A stretch of DNA of 8,207 bases from contig DAOWFY010000155.1 of the NCBI GenBank assembly GCA_030637775.1, forward strand, positions 1 to 8,207. The letters are read 5' to 3'. Both the position numbers and the translations under genes were made by a program. Every line of letters begins with the position of its first letter. Within the stretch, counting starts at the first letter, position 1. This document shows positions 1,223 through 7,087 of this stretch, in pieces. Source of the DNA: DAOVGU01 sp030637775 [NCBI: bacterium] (lineage in GTDB: Bacteria; Ratteibacteria; UBA8468). The notes beneath the pieces were generated by a model. The model searched no databases. It was not told the DNA's origin and was given only the letters and a program-made list of their open reading frames with translations.

Positions 1223-1576
1223 CTAACTTAAATCTAAACTGGCTTTTAAAGCTTTATCTACTTCTTGCTGAATGCGAAATGGAATTTCTCCCCATTTTTT
1301 ATCTAATCTTTTTTTATCTAGCGTTAAAAGGTGTCCGGTATCAATTACTGAGTCTTTAGTCAACCCGCCTACCCCTCTCTTGATTAAGACGCAGACCGGT
1401 AATTCTTTGGTTTCGTCTACTTGATGAATAGCCGCAACAATAGTTGTAGGTGAATGTTGATTGCCAATGTTATTCTGGATTATTAACGCTGGCCGAACCT
1501 TACCAATTTCTGCTGTTGTAATTCCTCCAAAATCTACCGAATAAATTTCTCCCCTTTTAGGAACTATTTCAGCCAT
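1223..1576 (-). CDS. mazF: MazF/PemK-type endoribonuclease toxin
   Basis: The 117-residue protein has the PemK/MazF fold pattern. KRGEIYSVDFG (7-17) is the first strand. GKVRPALIIQNN (25-36) carries the conserved Arg28-Pro29. SPTTIVAAI (42-50) holds the Ser/Thr-rich active-site strand. SVIDTGHLLTLDKKRL (76-91) corresponds to the family's SV-x-L-x-Q-I-R-T-x-D-K-x-R-L segment, although the usual Gln-Ile-Arg reads His-Leu-Leu here. The toxins of this family cut mRNA at short sequence motifs; the target motif here cannot be predicted. It follows the antitoxin by 16 bp, and its AAGGAG ribosome site directly abuts the antitoxin TAA stop, suggesting translational coupling. The ORF is intact and of normal length, so it could be active. 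Confidence 0.92.
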   Translation of the reverse strand: MAEIVPKRGEIYSVDFGGITTAEIGKVRPALIIQNNIGNQHSPTTIVAAIHQVDETKELPVCVLIKRGVGGLTKDSVIDTGHLLTLDKKRLDKKWGEIPFRIQQEVDKALKASLDLS

Positions 1577-1592
1577 GATTATTTTTCTCCTT

Positions 1593-1853
1593 TTAGCACC
1601 CAGGCCAGGTTTCTAAGGCGAGTGGCAACATTTCTTCAACTCGTTTAAGTTGCTTTTTTCTAACATTGAGATTGGAATAAACCGTGATATACCTTTTTCG
1701 CATTTCTTCTTTTTTTCTCACGGCTAACCATAGTTCGATGGCTTGTTTGAATAAGGCACTTCGTGGGAGATGAAGCTTAGATTCGTATTTGGTAACCATT
1801 CTTAAATCATCTTTGGGCAGACTAACAGTGACTTTTTCCGTTCTAATTGTCAT
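1593..1853 (-). CDS. Ribbon-helix-helix antitoxin of the MazF-type toxin
   Basis: This 86-residue protein has an N-terminal ribbon-helix-helix DNA-binding region: strand TEKVTVSLP (5-13), first helix 15-26, and second helix SALFKQAIELWLA (32-44). The basic, charged C-terminal tail (46-86), ending in LPLALETWP, is of the type that wraps and neutralises MazF; similar endings occur in MazE-like antitoxins. The start is secure: GGAGGTG lies 7 nt before the ATG, and a near-consensus promoter lies about 40 bp upstream. It comes first in the operon, the classic antitoxin-toxin order. Such antitoxins usually repress their own promoter, more strongly when bound to toxin; this is expected here but not shown. 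The sequence is not E. coli MazE, which has an AbrB-type fold, so no mazE symbol is given. Confidence 0.88.
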   Translation of the reverse strand: MTIRTEKVTVSLPKDDLRMVTKYESKLHLPRSALFKQAIELWLAVRKKEEMRKRYITVYSNLNVRKKQLKRVEEMLPLALETWPGC

Positions 1854-1893: not shown

Positions 1894-1922
1894 AGTATAA
1901 CACAAGTTCTTACTGTTGTCAA
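1894..1922 (-). promoter_or_regulatory. Strong sigma-70/A promoter of the toxin-antitoxin operon
   Basis: On the minus strand a perfect -35 TTGACA (1917-1922) is followed by a 17-nt spacer and TATACT (1894-1899, five of six). The -10 is preceded by TGT, giving an extended -10. The expected transcript start is near 1887, with a leader of about 34 nt that includes the antitoxin ribosome site. It may also drive the downstream PIG-L gene. Confidence 0.8.
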
Positions 1923-2102: not shown

Positions 2103-3116
2103 CTAAAACTCGCATATCTTTTCCCCTTTCTCTGCCGATTCCATCTCTTTGAGGACAAGCGCAAGAGAATCACGCGCATCCTCTGGCGTAACAACGGTCG
2201 GTTTTTTCTTCGCCTGTACACATTCCACAAAATATTTAATCTCATTATAGTAGCCACCTAACTCGGAGATGTTGCCGGATGTATCGGTTACCCTGGGAAT
2301 ATCCTCGCCTAATTTTGGATATTCGCTCTTTCCGGCGGTATAAATACCAAAAGGCTTGTTATAGGAGGTGTTATATTCCACTACTCCTTTCTCAAAGCGA
2401 GCAACAAAGGCCATTCTAAAGGGAAGGGTATCGACAAAATCCCAGCCGCCTTCAGCCGAAACAATAGAGTCCGGATATTCAAAGAGGGAAAAGATATGGC
2501 CATAGCCTCCCTTAATCTTTGTCCCGGAAGAGAAAAGAGTTTTTGGCCTTCCCAGAAGATAAAGAATGTAGTCGGTATCATGGATGTGCAGGTCAAAGAG
2601 AGCGCTACCGCTTTTCTCTGGTATCTGAAGCCAGTTTTCCCAGCCCCAGGTAGGAAGAGGTGAAAGCCGGGTAAGAGCAAGGGAGAGAAGTCTCCCCAAT
2701 TCACCGGAATCTTTAATTTCCTTTAGCCTGATATATTCCGGCCAGAATCTAATCACCTGAGCGATCATAAAGGTAATATTATTTTTGCGAGCCACATCAA
2801 CCATTTCATTGGCATCCTTCAGGGAAAGGGCGATCGGCTTTTCACAGAGGAGATGCTTGCCGGAGTTGGCCGCTTTAACCACCCATTCCTTATGGATGTA
2901 GGTTGGCAGACAGATATCAACCGCATCAACTTCAGAATTTTTTAAGAGTGCTTGCGCATCCTGGTAAGCGGTTGCACCAAACTTTTTTGCCAATTCCTCC
3001 GCCTTCTCTTTTCTGATGTCGGCAATTCCAATCAATTTTGCTCCGGGCAAAAGAGCATAGCACTGACTGTGCATTCCACCCATAAAACCGGCTCCAATCA
3101 CCCCTATCCTCACCAT
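2103..3116 (-). CDS. Gfo/Idh/MocA family NAD(P)-dependent oxidoreductase
   Basis: The 337-residue length fits the Gfo/Idh/MocA family, which oxidises or reduces sugars, inositols and sugar derivatives with NAD(P). The N-terminal Rossmann fold shows IGVIGAGFMGGMH (4-16), the glycine-rich nucleotide-binding loop, and an acidic residue in IADIRKEKAEE (31-41) that suggests a preference for NAD. CEKPIAL (91-97) contains the conserved Glu-Lys-Pro, with Lys93 the usual catalytic lysine. The C-terminal domain holds DLHIHDTD (175-182), matching the D-x-G-x-H-x-x-D signature, with His179 and Asp182 as predicted active-site residues. There is no Tat or Sec signal, so it should be cytoplasmic. It is the last gene of the operon, 9 bp after the membrane protein gene, whose TGA stop lies at the edge of the AGGAGG ribosome site. 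The family is certain; the substrate is unknown. Confidence 0.95.
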   Translation of the reverse strand: MVRIGVIGAGFMGGMHSQCYALLPGAKLIGIADIRKEKAEELAKKFGATAYQDAQALLKNSEVDAVDICLPTYIHKEWVVKAANSGKHLLCEKPIALSLKDANEMVDVARKNNITFMIAQVIRFWPEYIRLKEIKDSGELGRLLSLALTRLSPLPTWGWENWLQIPEKSGSALFDLHIHDTDYILYLLGRPKTLFSSGTKIKGGYGHIFSLFEYPDSIVSAEGGWDFVDTLPFRMAFVARFEKGVVEYNTSYNKPFGIYTAGKSEYPKLGEDIPRVTDTSGNISELGGYYNEIKYFVECVQAKKKPTVVTPEDARDSLALVLKEMESAEKGEKICEF

Positions 3117-3125
3117 TTTCCCTCC

Positions 3126-5090
3126 TCAAATCCAGAAAACCATATTCCCTTCCATCTTGGTAAAATAGTCAATAACAACCCAGATTCCAGCACAGGTATA
3201 TTGACCCAAAATCAACCCTAAGAAAAAAGGAACGGTATTTTTATATAACTTTGGTCCTCCATAGCGAAGAATCAGGCTTTTCAAAAGCCAGGCAAGAAAG
3301 ATGGAAAACCAAAGCTGGCTGATCCAGGTGAGAGAACCGACGGTAAAGCCTATTGGGTGTAAAGGCCACCAGAGAAATCTATTGCGCATAAACATCAGAC
3401 CAAACATTACTGCCGCTCCAATGCCCTTGCAGAGCCAGCCCAGGCCATTGGGACCGGTTGGATGAAGGATCTTATCTGCGGTATATAAAAATGGTGCCTT
3501 TGGTCCTCCGACAAAATACCAGGAGTTAAGGTTTGCCCCTCCATAGGTGTAGGAAAGTCGCAATACCAGCCAGAGGGAGGCAAAGATACCGATAATGAGA
3601 GCCAAAAGCATCCCCAGGAAGAGTAATCTCTTTCTCTTTCCCATCTCCTCGGCCATCTTCAAGCCATGAGCGGCTGGCGACATCGGGAAGGTTCTCACAT
3701 CGGAGGAATAGACATAGGTGAAACCTAAACCAACAAGACCAGAGGCTCCGACATTGGAAGAACCAATGCCAGAGACAACGGCTGAGGAGGAGATGGTCGG
3801 TGCGGTTAAGGTGGGGACACCACCTTCAGCAACAATCCGGGTTAAACCCAAAAAGAGAAGAAGAGCACCAAAGAGAAAGAGAAGAGAAATCCAGAAAGGG
3901 ATACCGGTTAAAACAAGCCAACCGGTCATAAAGATGCCTCCTAAGATAAGTCCGATTACGGCTGTCCGATAAGAAAGCATCTCGGAAGAGTCATCTATCT
4001 TTTTATCTCCTTTAAATGCTTTCCTAAAAACATCTCTTAAATGAGCTCTGGCCATCCAGAGACCAAAAAGAACAAAGACCAGGAAGGCACCCATTCCTAA
4101 GTGACCAAAGATAGGATCGGGTGTCCCATAGATACCAACATTCTCGGCACTACTTATCCCGGTGATATTAAAAATACCTCTAACAACGGTGGAAAGAAGA
4201 TTAAAGAACCAGAGAGAAAGAGCAACATCAAGGTTAATCAGATAGGCCAGTCCCATTACGGGAAAACTGAGGCGAAAGTAGATACCTGTTGTCTGCCGGA
4301 AGATAGGGATAAACTGGACTAAATTTATCGAGGGAATAAAATGAAAGTGATGGTGGAGGGCATTGATACTGCCAATGATAAAGGGAATCCCAAAGCCAAG
4401 CCACATTAGTTTATTTCGATAAAAGGGAGCAAGGGCAGGCGCCTGCCTGCCGGTAGGCAGGGGTTTACTCTTCTCTTCCTCTTTGACAATCTCCATCGGA
4501 AGTCTTGTTAGAGGAAAGATTAATCTTTCTCTCTCTACCCATTGCTTGCGAAGAATGACTATAATACAGATCATTACGATATAAAGAGCTAGGATAAAGG
4601 GAAGCCAGGCAGAGAGTGGTTTTATCCAGGCGCCCCAGGGGATGGAGGCTCCTTTGGGTAAACCCTCAAAGAAACACCTGATATTCTCTGCTCCCTGGGG
4701 AACCAACCAGGGTTTGATGTGGGGTTGAATAATCTCTGCCCATCTGTTCTCGGGAGTAGCATAATAAAAGGGAGCAGCAAGCATCGGGAGAATCTGGCTG
4801 CCCAAGCCCATCGTCACTACCGAGGAGCAGACAATGAGCATCGTATAGATTAAGAGTTGCTCTGAAGGATTAAAGCCAATTCCCATCTTGCGCAGAATTG
4901 TATTAACAAGAAGGGTAAAGACAAAGAAGATAAAGATACCTGCCGCGGGCATATGGTCAATCGCAAGGTAGGAACCATGGACAATGTTGATAGAGTATTG
5001 GCACATCACAACAACAAGGAAGCAAAGGAGAGCTCCGGTGATAAATGCCCTCAGGGTAAACCCCGACTTATTTTCTCTATCTAAATCCAT
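3126..5090 (-). CDS. Polytopic membrane protein, DUF6785/DUF6784 type, putative transporter
   Basis: The 654-residue protein has roughly 12-14 hydrophobic segments, clear ones near 13-32, 49-66, 78-95, 156-180, 276-296, 331-348, 374-417, 487-510, 553-569, 588-606 and 617-640. The N-terminal half carries the signature FYYATPENRWAEI (108-120), then PHIKPWLVPQ (123-132) and EGLPKGASIPWGAW (142-155), which I recognise from DUF6785 proteins. The C-terminal part, with PLHPIGF (576-582), LKSLILRYGG (603-612) and PFFLGLILG (621-629), matches DUF6784. No function is established for these families. A Gly/Ser/Ala-rich stretch (423-456) resembles re-entrant regions of transporters. The gene sits 5 bp after the NagB-like gene and 9 bp before the oxidoreductase gene, so uptake of a sugar-like substrate is a reasonable inference. 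Residues 211-217 come from a palindromic element inside the loop 201-226, after EEEKSK. The ribosome site is weak, so translation may depend on coupling. Confidence 0.85.
   Translation of the reverse strand: MDLDRENKSGFTLRAFITGALLCFLVVVMCQYSINIVHGSYLAIDHMPAAGIFIFFVFTLLVNTILRKMGIGFNPSEQLLIYTMLIVCSSVVTMGLGSQILPMLAAPFYYATPENRWAEIIQPHIKPWLVPQGAENIRCFFEGLPKGASIPWGAWIKPLSAWLPFILALYIVMICIIVILRKQWVERERLIFPLTRLPMEIVKEEEKSKPLPTGRQAPALAPFYRNKLMWLGFGIPFIIGSINALHHHFHFIPSINLVQFIPIFRQTTGIYFRLSFPVMGLAYLINLDVALSLWFFNLLSTVVRGIFNITGISSAENVGIYGTPDPIFGHLGMGAFLVFVLFGLWMARAHLRDVFRKAFKGDKKIDDSSEMLSYRTAVIGLILGGIFMTGWLVLTGIPFWISLLFLFGALLLFLGLTRIVAEGGVPTLTAPTISSSAVVSGIGSSNVGASGLVGLGFTYVYSSDVRTFPMSPAAHGLKMAEEMGKRKRLLFLGMLLALIIGIFASLWLVLRLSYTYGGANLNSWYFVGGPKAPFLYTADKILHPTGPNGLGWLCKGIGAAVMFGLMFMRNRFLWWPLHPIGFTVGSLTWISQLWFSIFLAWLLKSLILRYGGPKLYKNTVPFFLGLILGQYTCAGIWVVIDYFTKMEGNMVFWI
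4435..4461. repeat. GC-rich palindromic element inside the membrane protein gene (encodes LPTGRQA)
   Basis: CCTGCCTGCCGGTAGGCAGG (4442-4461) has perfect 7-bp arms and only one mismatched pair in its centre. It overlaps a second, perfect 12-bp palindrome, GCAGGCGCCTGC (4435-4446). The patch is far more GC-rich than its surroundings. On the coding strand it reads LPTGRQA (residues 211-217) in frame, in a hydrophilic loop between membrane segments. From memory, peptides like LPTGRQA or LPAGRQA recur in unrelated proteins of candidate-phylum genomes, as expected of a dispersed palindromic element tolerated inside genes. Confidence 0.7.
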
Positions 5091-5095
5091 TTTCT

Positions 5096-6016
5096 TTATT
5101 TCATCTTAATCTCAACATTTTCCGCCACGCCGCCCAAGATTGTGTAGGTTCCGGGAACTGTCTGTAGAAGTGAGCCGGGAACAAGGGTGTTAACCCGGCC
5201 GTGCGCAACAAGTCGTCCAATAAACCTTTGCCAGGAGATACCTCCGCCAAGATAACCATCCAACCAGAAACTTCTGTCTTTAGCCGAAATGATCTGGGCT
5301 GGCCCAATGGTATTTGCCTTTGGTGGAACCCATGACCAATCACCCGAGAAGGAATGGAGGGCATTCTGCATAATTGTCATTGGATGAAGCTCCACACACC
5401 TTGGCCCGGCTTTCTTGTAGGCATCTAAATCATCGCCAAATTCCTCTCCTAAGTGTGCCTCCCAGAAGGCAATATGACCACACCAGCCAATACCGCCGTA
5501 GACAATATCTGCCCCTCCGGAATCTTCAATCATTTTCCCGTAGGAAGAAAGAACCTCTGTGGTAGGAAAATGTATCTGATTCTCAGGCGGCCTTAAATCC
5601 TTGTCGATCTTTAAGAAAAATTCCTCCCTCATCACTTTCTGGAAAGAACCAGACCAATCTGCAGGAGCGCTCTCCCCTCTCTCATTGGTATATTCATCCA
5701 TATTGAAGGAAATGAGATTTTTGCAACTGATTCTTAGCCTATTAATCAGGGAGGCAGCAATGGGATATTGCGGCATTGGACCTACGGGAAAGATAGCCAC
5801 CAGTTTCCTTCGGTCTTCGTTTGCTTTTTTAATCCTCTCTACAATATCCAAGGCAAATTCCAAATAGAAATCCTCTAACTTTTCAATGATTCTAATCTTA
5901 AATTCGGGATTGGGATGCTTACAGATATCCTCTTTCTTGACCTTCCTTACCCGGGCGCATTCTTCACTGTCCTGAAATGGCAAAAACTTTGCCAACCGAT
6001 AATTAAATTCTTCCAT
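5096..6016 (-). CDS. Divergent NagB/6-phosphogluconolactonase-fold protein
   Basis: This 306-residue protein resembles glucosamine-6-phosphate deaminase (NagB, about 266 residues) with an extra N-terminal stretch of about 40. NMDEYT (105-110) matches the NagB Asp72-Glu73 segment. YGGIGWCGHIAFWEA (173-187) matches the GGVGNDGHIAFNEP motif, keeping the His (181) and Glu (186) but with Cys179 where NagB has catalytic Asp141. ANTIGPAQIISAKD (234-247) matches the later TVGVGTLLDA segment. The sugar-phosphate loop, normally TGGTP-like, reads FPVGPMPQYP (76-85), and by eye I find no counterparts of NagB Arg172 and Lys208. So the fold is well supported, but the substrate may not be glucosamine-6-phosphate, and a different isomerase or lactonase role is possible. 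It is the first gene of the operon, with its own strong promoter and an unusual G8 tract in its ribosome site. There is no signal peptide. Confidence 0.85.
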   Translation of the reverse strand: MEEFNYRLAKFLPFQDSEECARVRKVKKEDICKHPNPEFKIRIIEKLEDFYLEFALDIVERIKKANEDRRKLVAIFPVGPMPQYPIAASLINRLRISCKNLISFNMDEYTNERGESAPADWSGSFQKVMREEFFLKIDKDLRPPENQIHFPTTEVLSSYGKMIEDSGGADIVYGGIGWCGHIAFWEAHLGEEFGDDLDAYKKAGPRCVELHPMTIMQNALHSFSGDWSWVPPKANTIGPAQIISAKDRSFWLDGYLGGGISWQRFIGRLVAHGRVNTLVPGSLLQTVPGTYTILGGVAENVEIKMK

Positions 6017-6020
6017 AACG

Positions 6021-6030
6021 CCCCCCCCTC
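6021..6030 (-). promoter_or_regulatory. G8 homopolymer in the ribosome site of the NagB-like gene
   Basis: The minus strand reads GAGGGGGGGG (6021-6030) and then CGTT before the ATG at 6016. It is the only ribosome site candidate for this gene and an unusual G-run for this AT-rich genome. It also falls within the first bases of the predicted transcript (start near 6031), where polymerase slippage is possible. Confidence 0.5.
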
Positions 6031-6037
6031 ACAATTT

Positions 6038-6066
6038 ATTTTACTTCCTTCTTTCCTTAATGTCAA
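6038..6066 (-). promoter_or_regulatory. Sigma-70/A promoter of the NagB-like/DUF6785/oxidoreductase operon
   Basis: On the minus strand a perfect -35 TTGACA (6061-6066) is followed by a 17-nt spacer and TAAAAT (6038-6043, five of six). The predicted start near 6031 leaves a leader of only about 14 nt. No promoter-like gap exists between the three genes, so this should drive all of them. Confidence 0.75.
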
Positions 6067-6073
6067 AAATACT

Positions 6074-6086
6074 CCAAAAGATTTGG
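6074..6086. promoter_or_regulatory. 13-bp dyad between the two divergent -35 boxes, possible operator
   Basis: CCAAA-AGA-TTTGG (6074-6086) is a perfect 5-bp inverted repeat with a 3-nt centre. It lies in the 21 bp separating the leftward (6061-6066) and rightward (6088-6093) -35 boxes, so one bound protein could control both units. Short dyads arise by chance, and no regulator gene is visible in the window. Confidence 0.3.
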
Positions 6087-6087
6087 G

Positions 6088-6116
6088 TTGACAGGGTTAG
6101 AGGGCAATGTTACACT
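6088..6116 (+). promoter_or_regulatory. Sigma-70/A promoter of the ROK kinase gene
   Basis: A perfect -35 TTGACA (6088-6093), 17-nt spacer and TACACT (6111-6116, four of six) are preceded by TGT, giving an extended -10. The predicted start near 6123 lies downstream of the ATG at 6107 and about 11 nt before the ATG at 6134, which decides the start of the kinase gene. Confidence 0.7.
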
Positions 6117-6133
6117 TATCTGAGAAAACAAAG

Positions 6134-7087
6134 ATGAAGACAATTGTTGGGCTTGATTTGGGGGGAACATTCATTAAGGCTGGTCTGGTGAGTGAGAAGG
6201 GAAAAATCTTAAAGAAACAGCAGTTACCAACCTTGGGAGAGAAAGGAAGGGAGACGGTCCTTTCCCAGATGGAGAAAGGGATTAGATTTGCTCTAAAAGG
6301 GGAAAAGGAAATTATCGGCATTGGTATCGGTACCCCGGGCTTAGTCGATAAAGAGGGAAAGGTATTCTCTGCGCCAAATTTGCCGGATTGGGATAATTTA
6401 CCTTTAAAAAAGATTTTCCGGGATAAATTTCATCTTTTGGTTGTCGTGGAAAATGATGTCAATACCATTACCTCGGGTGAATACATTTATGGTGCGGGAA
6501 AAGGCTATAAAAACATTATCTGCATTACCTTAGGGACAGGTCTTGGTGGGGGAATGGTTCTGGATGGAAAGCTCTTTCGTGGCAGTAGCCTTTCTGCCGC
6601 TGAAATCGGACATATCCCCATTTGCTACGATGGACCAAAATGTAACTGCGGAAATATCGGCTGTATTGAACGCTATGTTGGCGCGGCCTACATCTCCCAG
6701 ATGGCTAAGGATGCAATTAAAAAAGGAAGAGAAAGCAAAATTAAGGAGTTAGTTAAAGGAGACCTTTCCCTTATTACCCCGAAGATTATCTCCGAGGCTT
6801 ATAGAAAGGGAGATTCGTTAGCCAAGGAGGTCTGGAAAAAGGTTGGTATCTACTTAGGAACGATGTTTTCCGGTCTGATTAATCTGCTTAATCCAGAAAT
6901 AATTATTATTGGTGGAGGTATTAGCCAGGCGGGAAAAGTCCTTTTTGATTCAGTAAGAAAGGAGATTAAGCAAAGGGCCTTCCCCCTTTTAGCAAAGGAT
7001 GTAAAGGTGGTGCCCGCAAAATTAGGCACAGACTCCGGTATCATCTCGGCTGCCTCCTTAATAAAGGGGTCAGGTCTCCACAGTTGA
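6134..7087 (+). CDS. ROK family sugar kinase (glucokinase-like)
   Basis: From the chosen start the protein has 317 residues, normal for ROK kinases that phosphorylate glucose or an N-acetylated amino sugar with ATP. Numbered from this start: LDLGGTFIKAG (7-17) is the phosphate-binding loop; GIGTPGLVD (64-72) follows; ENDVN (106-110) holds catalytic Asp108; TLGTGLGGG (132-140) is the second ATP loop; EIGH (157-160) has the sugar-binding Glu and a Zn-ligand His; and CNCGNIGCIE (170-179) is the ROK zinc signature with all three Cys. IIIIGGGIS (256-264) is the C-terminal nucleotide-binding segment. An upstream in-frame ATG (6107) would add nine residues, but it lies within the promoter and has its purine stretch only 2 nt away, so I reject it. 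It diverges from the sugar operon and precedes the tRNA enzyme gene by 7 bp. A regulatory ROK is unlikely, as there is no N-terminal helix-turn-helix. The sugar is unknown. Confidence 0.93.
   Translation: MKTIVGLDLGGTFIKAGLVSEKGKILKKQQLPTLGEKGRETVLSQMEKGIRFALKGEKEIIGIGIGTPGLVDKEGKVFSAPNLPDWDNLPLKKIFRDKFHLLVVVENDVNTITSGEYIYGAGKGYKNIICITLGTGLGGGMVLDGKLFRGSSLSAAEIGHIPICYDGPKCNCGNIGCIERYVGAAYISQMAKDAIKKGRESKIKELVKGDLSLITPKIISEAYRKGDSLAKEVWKKVGIYLGTMFSGLINLLNPEIIIIGGGISQAGKVLFDSVRKEIKQRAFPLLAKDVKVVPAKLGTDSGIISAASLIKGSGLHS

What the first reader, a model, noticed from the sequence alone, without database searches (positions are those of the whole stretch)
2103..7087. Candidate undescribed carbohydrate-use locus built around a DUF6785 membrane protein
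Seen: a NagB-fold protein, a DUF6785/DUF6784 membrane protein and a Gfo/Idh/MocA oxidoreductase are packed with 5- and 9-bp gaps behind one promoter. A ROK kinase diverges from the same control region, and a PIG-L deacetylase lies further along the operon's strand. Known: ROK, Gfo/Idh, NagB and PIG-L families all act on sugars or amino sugars. Inferred: together they form an uptake and catabolic module, perhaps for an N-acetylated or unusual amino sugar, with the DUF6785 protein as importer. No secreted hydrolase, ABC or PTS component is present, so substrate entry depends on an uncharacterised family.
Basis: partly seen in the sequence, partly recalled or inferred. Interest (0 to 1): 0.6.

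Follow-up and report, generated by a model that had tools for sequence, protein, structure and literature searches.

The report
Amino-sugar-type operon with OPT-fold transporter
A small gene cluster in an uncultured bacterium pairs sugar-processing enzymes with a membrane protein of a nameless family, and that family turns out to be a distant branch of a known transporter superfamily, which makes its role as an importer testable although its cargo is still unknown.

Summary
The anatomy is confirmed: NagB-like (5096-6016), DUF6785/DUF6784 (3126-5090) and Gfo/Idh (2103-3116) lie on the - strand with 5- and 9-bp gaps. A ROK kinase diverges across 90 bp that hold two near-consensus promoters. DUF6785 is very probably a transporter: its profile matches OPT nearly end to end (E 1.3e-9; controls fail), and its AlphaFold2 model (pLDDT 93.9) matches barley YS1 (Z 24; next unrelated chain 5.2). 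DUF6785 stands beside it in 2 of the 27, the window and its sister genome. Best reading: a mobile amino-sugar-type catabolic module that here has an OPT-superfamily importer. Substrate and transport direction are inferred. The ROK kinase has an orthologue in 34 of 35 genomes of the class, so it is a doubtful module member.

The parts
5096..6016 (-). NagB-like protein, 306 aa: divergent clade of the NagB (glucosamine-6-phosphate deaminase) superfamily with a ~40-aa N-terminal extension; first gene of the operon
3126..5090 (-). DUF6785/DUF6784 membrane protein, 654 aa: distant OPT-superfamily transporter; candidate importer
2103..3116 (-). Gfo/Idh/MocA-family dehydrogenase, 337 aa
497..1198 (-). 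PIG-L-family N-deacetylase, 233 aa (nearest solved relatives BshB and diacetylchitobiose deacetylase); closer to Gfo/Idh in two related genomes
6107..7087 (+). ROK-family sugar kinase (start more likely 6134); divergent; near-universal in the class, so only a doubtful module member
6038..6066 (-). Sigma-70-type promoter-like site TTGACA-17-TAAAAT upstream of the NagB-like gene
6088..6116 (+). Sigma-70-type promoter-like site TTGACA-17-TACACT with extended -10, before ROK and the CCA-transferase
1223..1576 (-). PemK/MazF-family toxin of a type II toxin-antitoxin pair; probably an insertion into the cluster
1593..1853 (-). Ribbon-helix-helix antitoxin-like protein (RHH_1 20.4 bits, just under the Pfam cut-off 20.5)
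1894..1922 (-). Promoter-like site TTGACA-17-TATACT (11/12, TG) before the toxin-antitoxin pair and PIG-L

Best explanation
The locus is a compact catabolic module for an N-acylated (amino) sugar or a similar polyol. DUF6785 is an OPT-superfamily secondary transporter that most likely imports the substrate. PIG-L removes the N-acyl group, Gfo/Idh oxidises or reduces a ring hydroxyl or keto group, and the NagB-like enzyme carries out the aldose-ketose isomerisation and/or deamination. The ROK kinase may phosphorylate the sugar but is probably a general hexokinase of the class. The recurrent core is the NagB-like enzyme with PIG-L and Gfo/Idh (and DegT elsewhere). It occurs in several phyla, often beside ABC sugar importers (11 of 27 loci), and DUF6785 occupies the importer's place only here and in the sister genome. 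Shown: gene order, families, fold, co-occurrence counts. Inferred: substrate, direction of transport, order of steps.
For: OPT relationship: hhalign of 64 DUF6785 against 19 OPT proteins gives probability 96.4, E 1.3e-9 over 531 columns; sodium:solute symporters give 0.2%, reversed OPT 0.1%. The Pfam DUF6785 profile scores a G203 protein at 28.8 bits, over its cut-off of 25, and that protein is a Pfam OPT (E 4.6e-43). The model (pLDDT 93.9, pTM 0.93) matches YS1 7wst/7wsr at Foldseek E 2.2e-9 and 3.5e-9 with the next chain at 0.06, and Z 24.2 over 539 residues at 3.7 A with the next unrelated chain at 5.2. Module: 23 clade-1 NagB-like loci have PIG-L in 10 (10 of 179 nearby ORFs against 0 of 476 control ORFs), DegT in 8, ROK in 7, ABC sugar importer parts in 7; four loci recovered later add ABC 4, DegT 4, Gfo/Idh 4, ROK 2, PIG-L 1, making 27. 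In the class, PIG-L lies within 300 bp on the same strand at 10 of 40 NagB-family places of 84 bits or more, in 9 of 28 genomes; all 10 belong to the more distant NagB clade (28 places). In the sister genome G001, NagB-like and DUF6785 are neighbours, and Gfo/Idh and PIG-L follow a DUF6785 end piece on a second contig.
Against: DUF6785 sits beside a clade-1 NagB-like gene in only 2 of 27 loci, both in one genus, and the 5-bp gap of the window is 195 bp in the sister genome. The DUF6785 family as a whole is not enriched near these enzymes, and one copy found in many genomes of the class sits among leuA/leuC/gatA/pyrG-like genes. Known OPT cargoes are not sugars. The Gfo/Idh excess is weak (7 of 179 near against 6 of 476 control, p 0.05). 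NagB's catalytic Asp141 is Cys here and the Lys208 position is Pro, so deamination of a 6-phosphate sugar is not assured. In a second clade of NagB-like proteins (9 loci) neither PIG-L, DegT, ROK nor ABC sugar parts occur within five genes.
Confidence: 0.5

Rival explanations
1. DUF6785 is an OPT-superfamily transporter for peptides or a metal chelate and stands in this operon by chance or for a separate need; only the enzymes form the sugar module.
For: Family-wide neighbourhoods show no link to these enzymes; OPT cargoes named in the listing (glutathione, folate) and in passages of PMC9691689 (iron-phytosiderophore) are not sugars; DUF6785 accompanies the clade-1 NagB-like gene in one genus only, with a 195-bp gap in the sister genome.
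Against: In the window the gene lies between NagB-like and Gfo/Idh with 5- and 9-bp gaps, in the place where other clusters have ABC sugar permeases; NagB-like and DUF6785 are neighbours on one strand in the sister genome too.
Confidence: 0.27
2. The substrate is an aminocyclitol, inositol or 3-amino-3-deoxy sugar rather than a GlcNAc-type sugar: Gfo/Idh and DegT would interconvert keto and amino groups on the ring, with xylose-isomerase-like TIM-barrel proteins as epimerases or dehydratases.
For: Both Gfo/Idh proteins of the G175 cluster (L036) score best with IolG among NCBIfam models (under cut-off); for the window Gfo/Idh, IolG is second (154.5 bits) after UDP-GlcNAc 3-dehydrogenase (163.8), both far under their cut-offs. 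The DegT neighbour matches glutamine:scyllo-inosose aminotransferases and NtdA in PDB, though its best matches are an unnamed DegT protein (7l7x) and perosamine synthetases. TIM-barrel epimerase-like genes lie in some of the clusters.
Against: No DegT or TIM-barrel gene is in the window, and the subfamily models stay under their cut-offs. TIM-barrel genes are not enriched near the NagB-like gene (3 of 179 against 5 of 476).
Confidence: 0.25
3. PIG-L here serves a bacillithiol-like thiol or envelope pathway and is unrelated to the operon.
For: The best-scoring NCBIfam model is BshB1 (117 bits, under the cut-off of 182.5), and the best PDB match is a BshB-type deacetylase (6p2t, E 6.6e-19); in the window PIG-L lies behind a toxin-antitoxin pair with its own promoter-like site.
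Against: In G001 and G003 PIG-L follows Gfo/Idh by about 435 and 506 bp, and PIG-L of this type directly flanks the NagB-like gene in G080, G355, G434 and G437. Diacetylchitobiose deacetylase is nearly as close as BshB (E 5.9e-17). Other bacillithiol genes were not searched for.
Confidence: 0.12

Closest known systems
OPT superfamily (Pfam PF03169; barley Yellow Stripe 1, PDB 7wsr/7wst)
   Same: Collinear along nearly the whole chain by profile and by structure.
   Different: About 11-13% identity; the window protein gets no Pfam OPT hit at E 5; the OPT GD..QD motif, which holds YS1 Asp490 and Asp494 (proposed proton sites, PMC9691689, passages), is not kept at the aligned place, where Lys478 (Lys in 54 of 64, Arg in 9) stands.
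Glucosamine-6-phosphate deaminase NagB (TIGR00502)
   Same: Detectable homology; FNMDEY with the Asp72 equivalent, GH-IAF-E with the His143 and Glu148 equivalents, and the Arg172 equivalent are kept (residue roles partly recalled).
   Different: Asp141 to Cys, Lys208 position to Pro, the GSTP-type loop replaced by VGPMPQ, an N-terminal extension, and 54.3 bits against a cut-off of 236.9.
   Same: NagB-like and Gfo/Idh in one cluster (PIG-L too in G175 and G407).
   Different: They carry a binding protein, permeases and DegT; here one DUF6785 gene and no DegT.
Archaeal chitin route with PIG-L diacetylchitobiose deacetylase (recalled; PDB 3we7, 8bgn)
   Same: PIG-L deacetylation of an N-acetyl sugar before further catabolism.
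   Different: No glycoside hydrolase in the window, a NagB-fold rather than a SIS-fold deaminase (recalled), and a different importer.

Membership tests
Pfam DUF6785 (PF20581) plus DUF6784 (PF20580) | Score over the curated cut-offs | tested here: met
   439.8 bits (cut-off 25) and 112.4 bits (cut-off 26.4)
OPT superfamily | Full-length profile similarity beyond that of unrelated membrane proteins | tested here: met
   hhalign 96.4%, E 1.3e-9, 531 columns; controls (one unrelated family, two reversed alignments) at 0.1-0.2%
OPT superfamily | OPT fold | tested here: met
   Z 24.2 over 539 residues of a 600-residue chain, next unrelated chain 5.2; Foldseek E 2.2e-9
OPT family in the strict sense (PF03169) | Pfam OPT score over the cut-off | tested here: not met
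   No OPT hit for the window protein at E 5
OPT family in the strict sense | GD..QD motif that carries YS1 Asp490/Asp494 | tested here: inconclusive
   Not kept in the hhalign alignment (Lys478 and Glu482 instead), but the local alignment is gapped there
OPT superfamily | Proton-coupled uptake | not testable with these tools
   Needs transport assays
GlcN-6-P deaminase NagB (TIGR00502) | Curated score | tested here: not met
   54.3 bits against 236.9
GlcN-6-P deaminase NagB | Catalytic set Asp72, Asp141, His143, Glu148 | tested here: not met
   Three of four kept; Asp141 is Cys in the window and in the 11 other clade-1 rows aligned (numbering recalled; His143 and Glu148 named in a passage of PMC4008608)
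GlcN-6-P deaminase NagB | 6-phosphate site with Arg172 and Lys208 | tested here: inconclusive
   Arg kept, Lys208 position is Pro with Lys one place later in 10 of 12 clade-1 rows (roles recalled); no reliable model (pLDDT 33)
PIG-L deacetylase (PF02585) | Pfam score and AHPDD/H zinc motif | tested here: met
   86.1 bits; AHPDD and DH present in the translation (zinc role recalled)
BshB1 (TIGR04001) | Curated score | tested here: not met
   117 bits against 182.5
ROK glucokinase (TIGR00744) | Curated score, no DNA-binding domain | tested here: met
   263.3 bits against 260.35; 326 aa, aligned from residue 13 to glucokinase 3vgk
Gfo/Idh/MocA dehydrogenase | Pfam N domain; any named substrate class | tested here: inconclusive
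   N domain met (110.1 bits); each equivalog model listed is under its cut-off
   Gfo 11, ROK 3, PIG-L 3, NagB 2 of 809 near ORFs (window and sister locus included: both NagB, two ROK, one PIG-L, one Gfo) against 6, 1, 0, 1 of 476 control ORFs

The most novel reading that the evidence does not exclude
A NagB-fold clade with Cys in place of the catalytic Asp, partnered with PIG-L, Gfo/Idh and DegT, defines an undescribed (amino) sugar pathway spread across phyla, and DUF6785 is the first OPT-superfamily branch that imports sugars.
Probability: 0.2. Interest if true: 0.7.

Novelty: new variant of a known kind. Interest (0 to 1): 0.42.

Why it matters
DUF6785 is a large family, often with several copies per genome, in Ratteibacteria, Poribacteria, Latescibacterota, Gemmatimonadota and Planctomycetota records, and no paper in the searched library names it. 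Placing it in the OPT superfamily gives these uncultured bacteria a testable class of secondary transporters. The module shows which enzymes to assay for the substrate. If DUF6785 carried sugars it would widen the known cargo of OPT proteins.

Tried and rejected
DUF6785 and sulfatases: a first count looked striking (45 of 809 near ORFs against 1 of 476), but it is confounded. In the named loci sulfatases are as common 3-5 genes away (23 of 221) as at 1-2 genes (18 of 195), and still 6 of 103 at 6-9 genes; in the G-handle loci they are 6 of 442 within 5 genes and 2 of 74 at 6-9. I reject it as a specific link. The PhyH (15 against 0) and SDR (10 against 0) excesses were not checked for the same confound.

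Sequence searches of PDB with DUF6785 and the fold search among viral proteins gave nothing useful. The scan of viral contigs confirmed no NagB-like relative. The NagB-like model from two sequences failed (pLDDT 33) and was not used. Paper searches for the enzyme combination found nothing. MFS, CLC and peptide-transporter rows (Z up to 5.2) were treated as background.

Limits: ORFs come from a simple longest-ORF caller, and the family labels come from profiles built here by iteration, which can miss distant members. In one search, four of the 80 named loci (L186, L188, L194, L240) yielded no DUF6785 ORF and were left out; four NagB-like loci (L311, L316, L317, L319) were lost the same way and recovered. 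Two clade-1 places (G406, G438) were not fetched. In one search I had added by hand an 11th NagB/PIG-L pair (G014:C63, a 38-bit contig-end piece) because it stood next to PIG-L; it is left out of the counts given here. The 40 control stretches were picked by hand from genomes with DUF6785 or NagB-family genes; most named loci and all clade-1 genomes but G002 are not represented. Loci are not independent lineages, so p-values are only indicative. Genomes are drafts, so genes on different contigs say little about adjacency.
Full report
WHAT IS THERE. The window is one whole 8207-bp contig (G000:C26) of a 1.4-Mb draft genome, 83.5% complete. The closest named relatives of its DUF6785 gene are labelled bacterium, Candidatus Omnitrophota or Candidatus Ratteibacteria, with a few other labels such as Mariniphaga, Vermiphilus and Poribacteria; I take the class to be Ratteibacteria. 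Genes on the - strand, in order of transcription: NagB-like 6016-5096, DUF6785/6784 5090-3126, Gfo/Idh 3116-2103, a ribbon-helix-helix protein 1853-1593, a PemK/MazF-family toxin 1576-1223, PIG-L 1198-497, DUF2283 429-187. On the + strand: ROK 6107-7087 and CCA tRNA nucleotidyltransferase from 7095 to the contig end. The 90 bp between NagB-like and ROK hold two diverging near-consensus promoter-like sites, and a third stands before the toxin-antitoxin pair. So the first three genes probably form one transcription unit, while PIG-L may have a second promoter here.

IS PIG-L PART OF IT? In the sister genome G001, NagB-like and the first part of a DUF6785 end one contig (C102), with a 195-bp gap between them instead of 5. 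Another contig (C267) carries the last part of a DUF6785, then Gfo/Idh (93% identical) and PIG-L (two pieces, 90 and 89%) about 435 bp later; in G003 Gfo/Idh and PIG-L (83 and 85%) are about 506 bp apart. These gaps are shorter than the 904 bp in the window, so the toxin-antitoxin pair looks like an insertion (inference; the gap sequences were not read). Elsewhere the same short PIG-L type directly flanks the NagB-like gene in G080, G355, G434 and G437, and a longer PIG-L type lies near it in G175 (two loci), G401, G402 and G407 (four of these five confirmed by Pfam). Among 40 NagB-family places of 84 bits or more in the class, PIG-L lies within 300 bp on the same strand at 10, in 9 of 28 genomes; all 10 are of the more distant NagB clade, which has 28 of the 40 places. 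PIG-L therefore belongs with NagB-like genes.

THE NAGB-LIKE PROTEIN IS THE ANCHOR. It has no Pfam hit and is far under the NagB cut-off, but is homologous to NagB. Orthologues at 66-92% identity occur in the window's family, in G175's phylum, in G080's phylum (3 of 3 genomes) and in G061's phylum. Such identity across phyla suggests transfer (inference). In 27 clade-1 loci (23 plus 4; 27 of the 29 clade-1 places found), within about five genes: ABC sugar importer parts in 11, PIG-L in 11 (one a contig-end piece), DegT in 12, Gfo/Idh in 10, ROK in 9 (several of about 400 aa, so repressor-like), DUF6785 in 2. Controls (476 ORFs in 40 arbitrary stretches) had 0 PIG-L, 0 DegT, 0 ABC sugar parts, 6 Gfo/Idh and 1 ROK. 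A recurring order is permease-permease-NagB-like-DegT-Gfo/Idh-binding protein. In the window DUF6785 stands between NagB-like and Gfo/Idh. A second clade of NagB-like proteins (9 loci) has none of PIG-L, DegT, ROK or ABC sugar parts nearby, so the association is particular to clade 1 and, for PIG-L, to the distant clade. In the 12 clade-1 rows of the alignment the NagB Asp141 position is Cys, and the lysine position of VPKxA is Pro, while the Asp72, His143, Glu148 and Arg172 equivalents are kept (roles partly recalled). A NagB-type proton transfer is plausible, a canonical GlcN-6-phosphate deaminase is not established.

WHAT DUF6785 IS. Three lines place it in the OPT superfamily. First, profile-profile: 64 DUF6785 against 19 OPT proteins, probability 96.4, E 1.3e-9, 531 columns covering both nearly end to end, while sodium:solute symporters and reversed alignments give 0.1-0.2%. 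Second, the Pfam DUF6785 model scores a protein in G203 at 28.8 bits, over its cut-off, and that protein is a Pfam OPT (E 4.6e-43); two weaker hits under the cut-off (G189, G369) were not followed. Third, structure: pLDDT 93.9, pTM 0.93; Foldseek E 2.2e-9 to barley YS1, next chain 0.06; Z 24.2, 3.7 A over 539 residues, next unrelated chain 5.2. Against strict membership, the window protein itself gets no Pfam OPT hit at E 5. YS1 is described as a proton-coupled importer with a proposed elevator-like mechanism in which Asp446, Asp490 and Asp494 may bind protons (PMC9691689, passages read). The OPT profile aligns its GD..QD motif to Asp490/Asp494; in DUF6785 the aligned stretch carries Lys478 (Lys in 54 of 64, Arg in 9) instead, so the coupling chemistry may differ, if that gapped part of the alignment is right. 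A further family without a Pfam hit for its representative (L217:3097-5112; 8 members found, the 7 over 500 aa used) is also OPT-like (94.7% to DUF6785, 93.0% to OPT) and is sometimes a neighbour of DUF6785. No paper in the searched library names DUF6785 or DUF6784; nothing outside that library was searched.

DUF6785 was found in 47 of 386 genomes sampled around the window (45 over the cut-off), including 31 of 35 of its class. Around 130 distinct DUF6785 genes, NagB, Gfo/Idh, ROK and PIG-L are not enriched (2, 11, 3, 3 of 809 ORFs against 1, 6, 1, 0 of 476); both NagB and two of the three ROK hits come from the window and its sister locus. Among 117 close same-strand neighbours, the largest groups are GatA-type (18) and PfkB/HldE-type (11) proteins, then DUF6785 itself (7), sulfatase (6) and the ~1600-aa peptidase/FtsX-type protein (5); the one NagB and the one Gfo/Idh are both the window's own (GatA and PfkB/HldE names are my reading of the sequences). 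The sulfatase excess did not survive an internal control. So the family does not mark this kind of sugar locus. The case for sugar import here rests on the position in the operon and on importer replacement, that is, on one genus.

THE ROK GENE. It passes the glucokinase model by a small margin (263.3 against 260.35) and is closest to glucokinases in PDB. All 35 genomes of the class have a match at E 1e-30; in 34 the best match is 54% identical or more, in G008 it is 27%. The clade-1 NagB-like gene was found in only 3 of these genomes. ROK lies next to or within 2 kb of the CCA-transferase in G000, G001 and G002 only, as far as the drafts show. It may serve the module but looks like a general hexokinase.

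JUDGEMENT. Observation confirmed; interpretation partly supported. Shown: anatomy, OPT-superfamily placement of DUF6785, recurrence of NagB-like with PIG-L, DegT and ABC sugar importers. Inferred: import rather than export, substrate class, order of reactions. Confidence in the OPT placement about 0.93, in a sugar/amino-sugar module about 0.65, in DUF6785 importing the module's substrate about 0.45.

Noticed in passing
window 4442-4461: A perfect 20-bp palindrome (CCTGCCTGCCGGTAGGCAGG) lies in an in-frame insertion that adds about 8-9 codons (around PLPTGRQAP) to DUF6785; the 15 other sequences displayed (of 63 aligned) lack it, and an exact 17-base core occurs in none of the other fetched loci apart from two cut from the window's own contig. 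It may be a small mobile palindromic element tolerated in a loop.
   Followed up: partly
window 1223-1853: PemK/MazF-type toxin and ribbon-helix-helix partner with their own promoter-like site between Gfo/Idh and PIG-L; the corresponding gap is shorter in G001 and G003.
   Followed up: partly
L049 4222-5925 and following 89-aa ORF (G000:C30): A second DUF6785 copy in the same genome is broken into a 567-aa and an 89-aa reading frame (mutation or assembly error) and is flanked by two UroD-type and several Gfo/Idh genes.
   Followed up: no
L217 3097-5112; also L181, L183, L214, L222, L227, L112: A family of about 670 aa, whose representative has no Pfam hit, is an OPT-superfamily relative by profile comparison; in five of these seven loci it directly follows a ~1560-1640-aa protein (M28 peptidase plus FtsX/MacB domains in the one scanned, L181) near DUF6785.
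   Followed up: partly
L124, L129, L130 and others: In many genomes of the class one DUF6785 copy lies in a recurring row with LeuA/HCS-, LeuC-, GatA-, HldE/PfkB- or PyrG-like genes, a housekeeping-like setting (names read from sequence).
   Followed up: no
L040, L042, L045, L046: A second NagB-like clade (50-53% identical in these loci) is followed by an amidohydrolase-like gene, a gene that in L042 is a LarA-type lactate racemase homologue (Pfam Lar_N/LarA_C), and a UroD-type gene, suggesting a different sugar-acid route.
   Followed up: no
window 6107-6134: The called ROK start overlaps a strong promoter-like site; the ATG at 6134 is the likelier start.
   Followed up: partly
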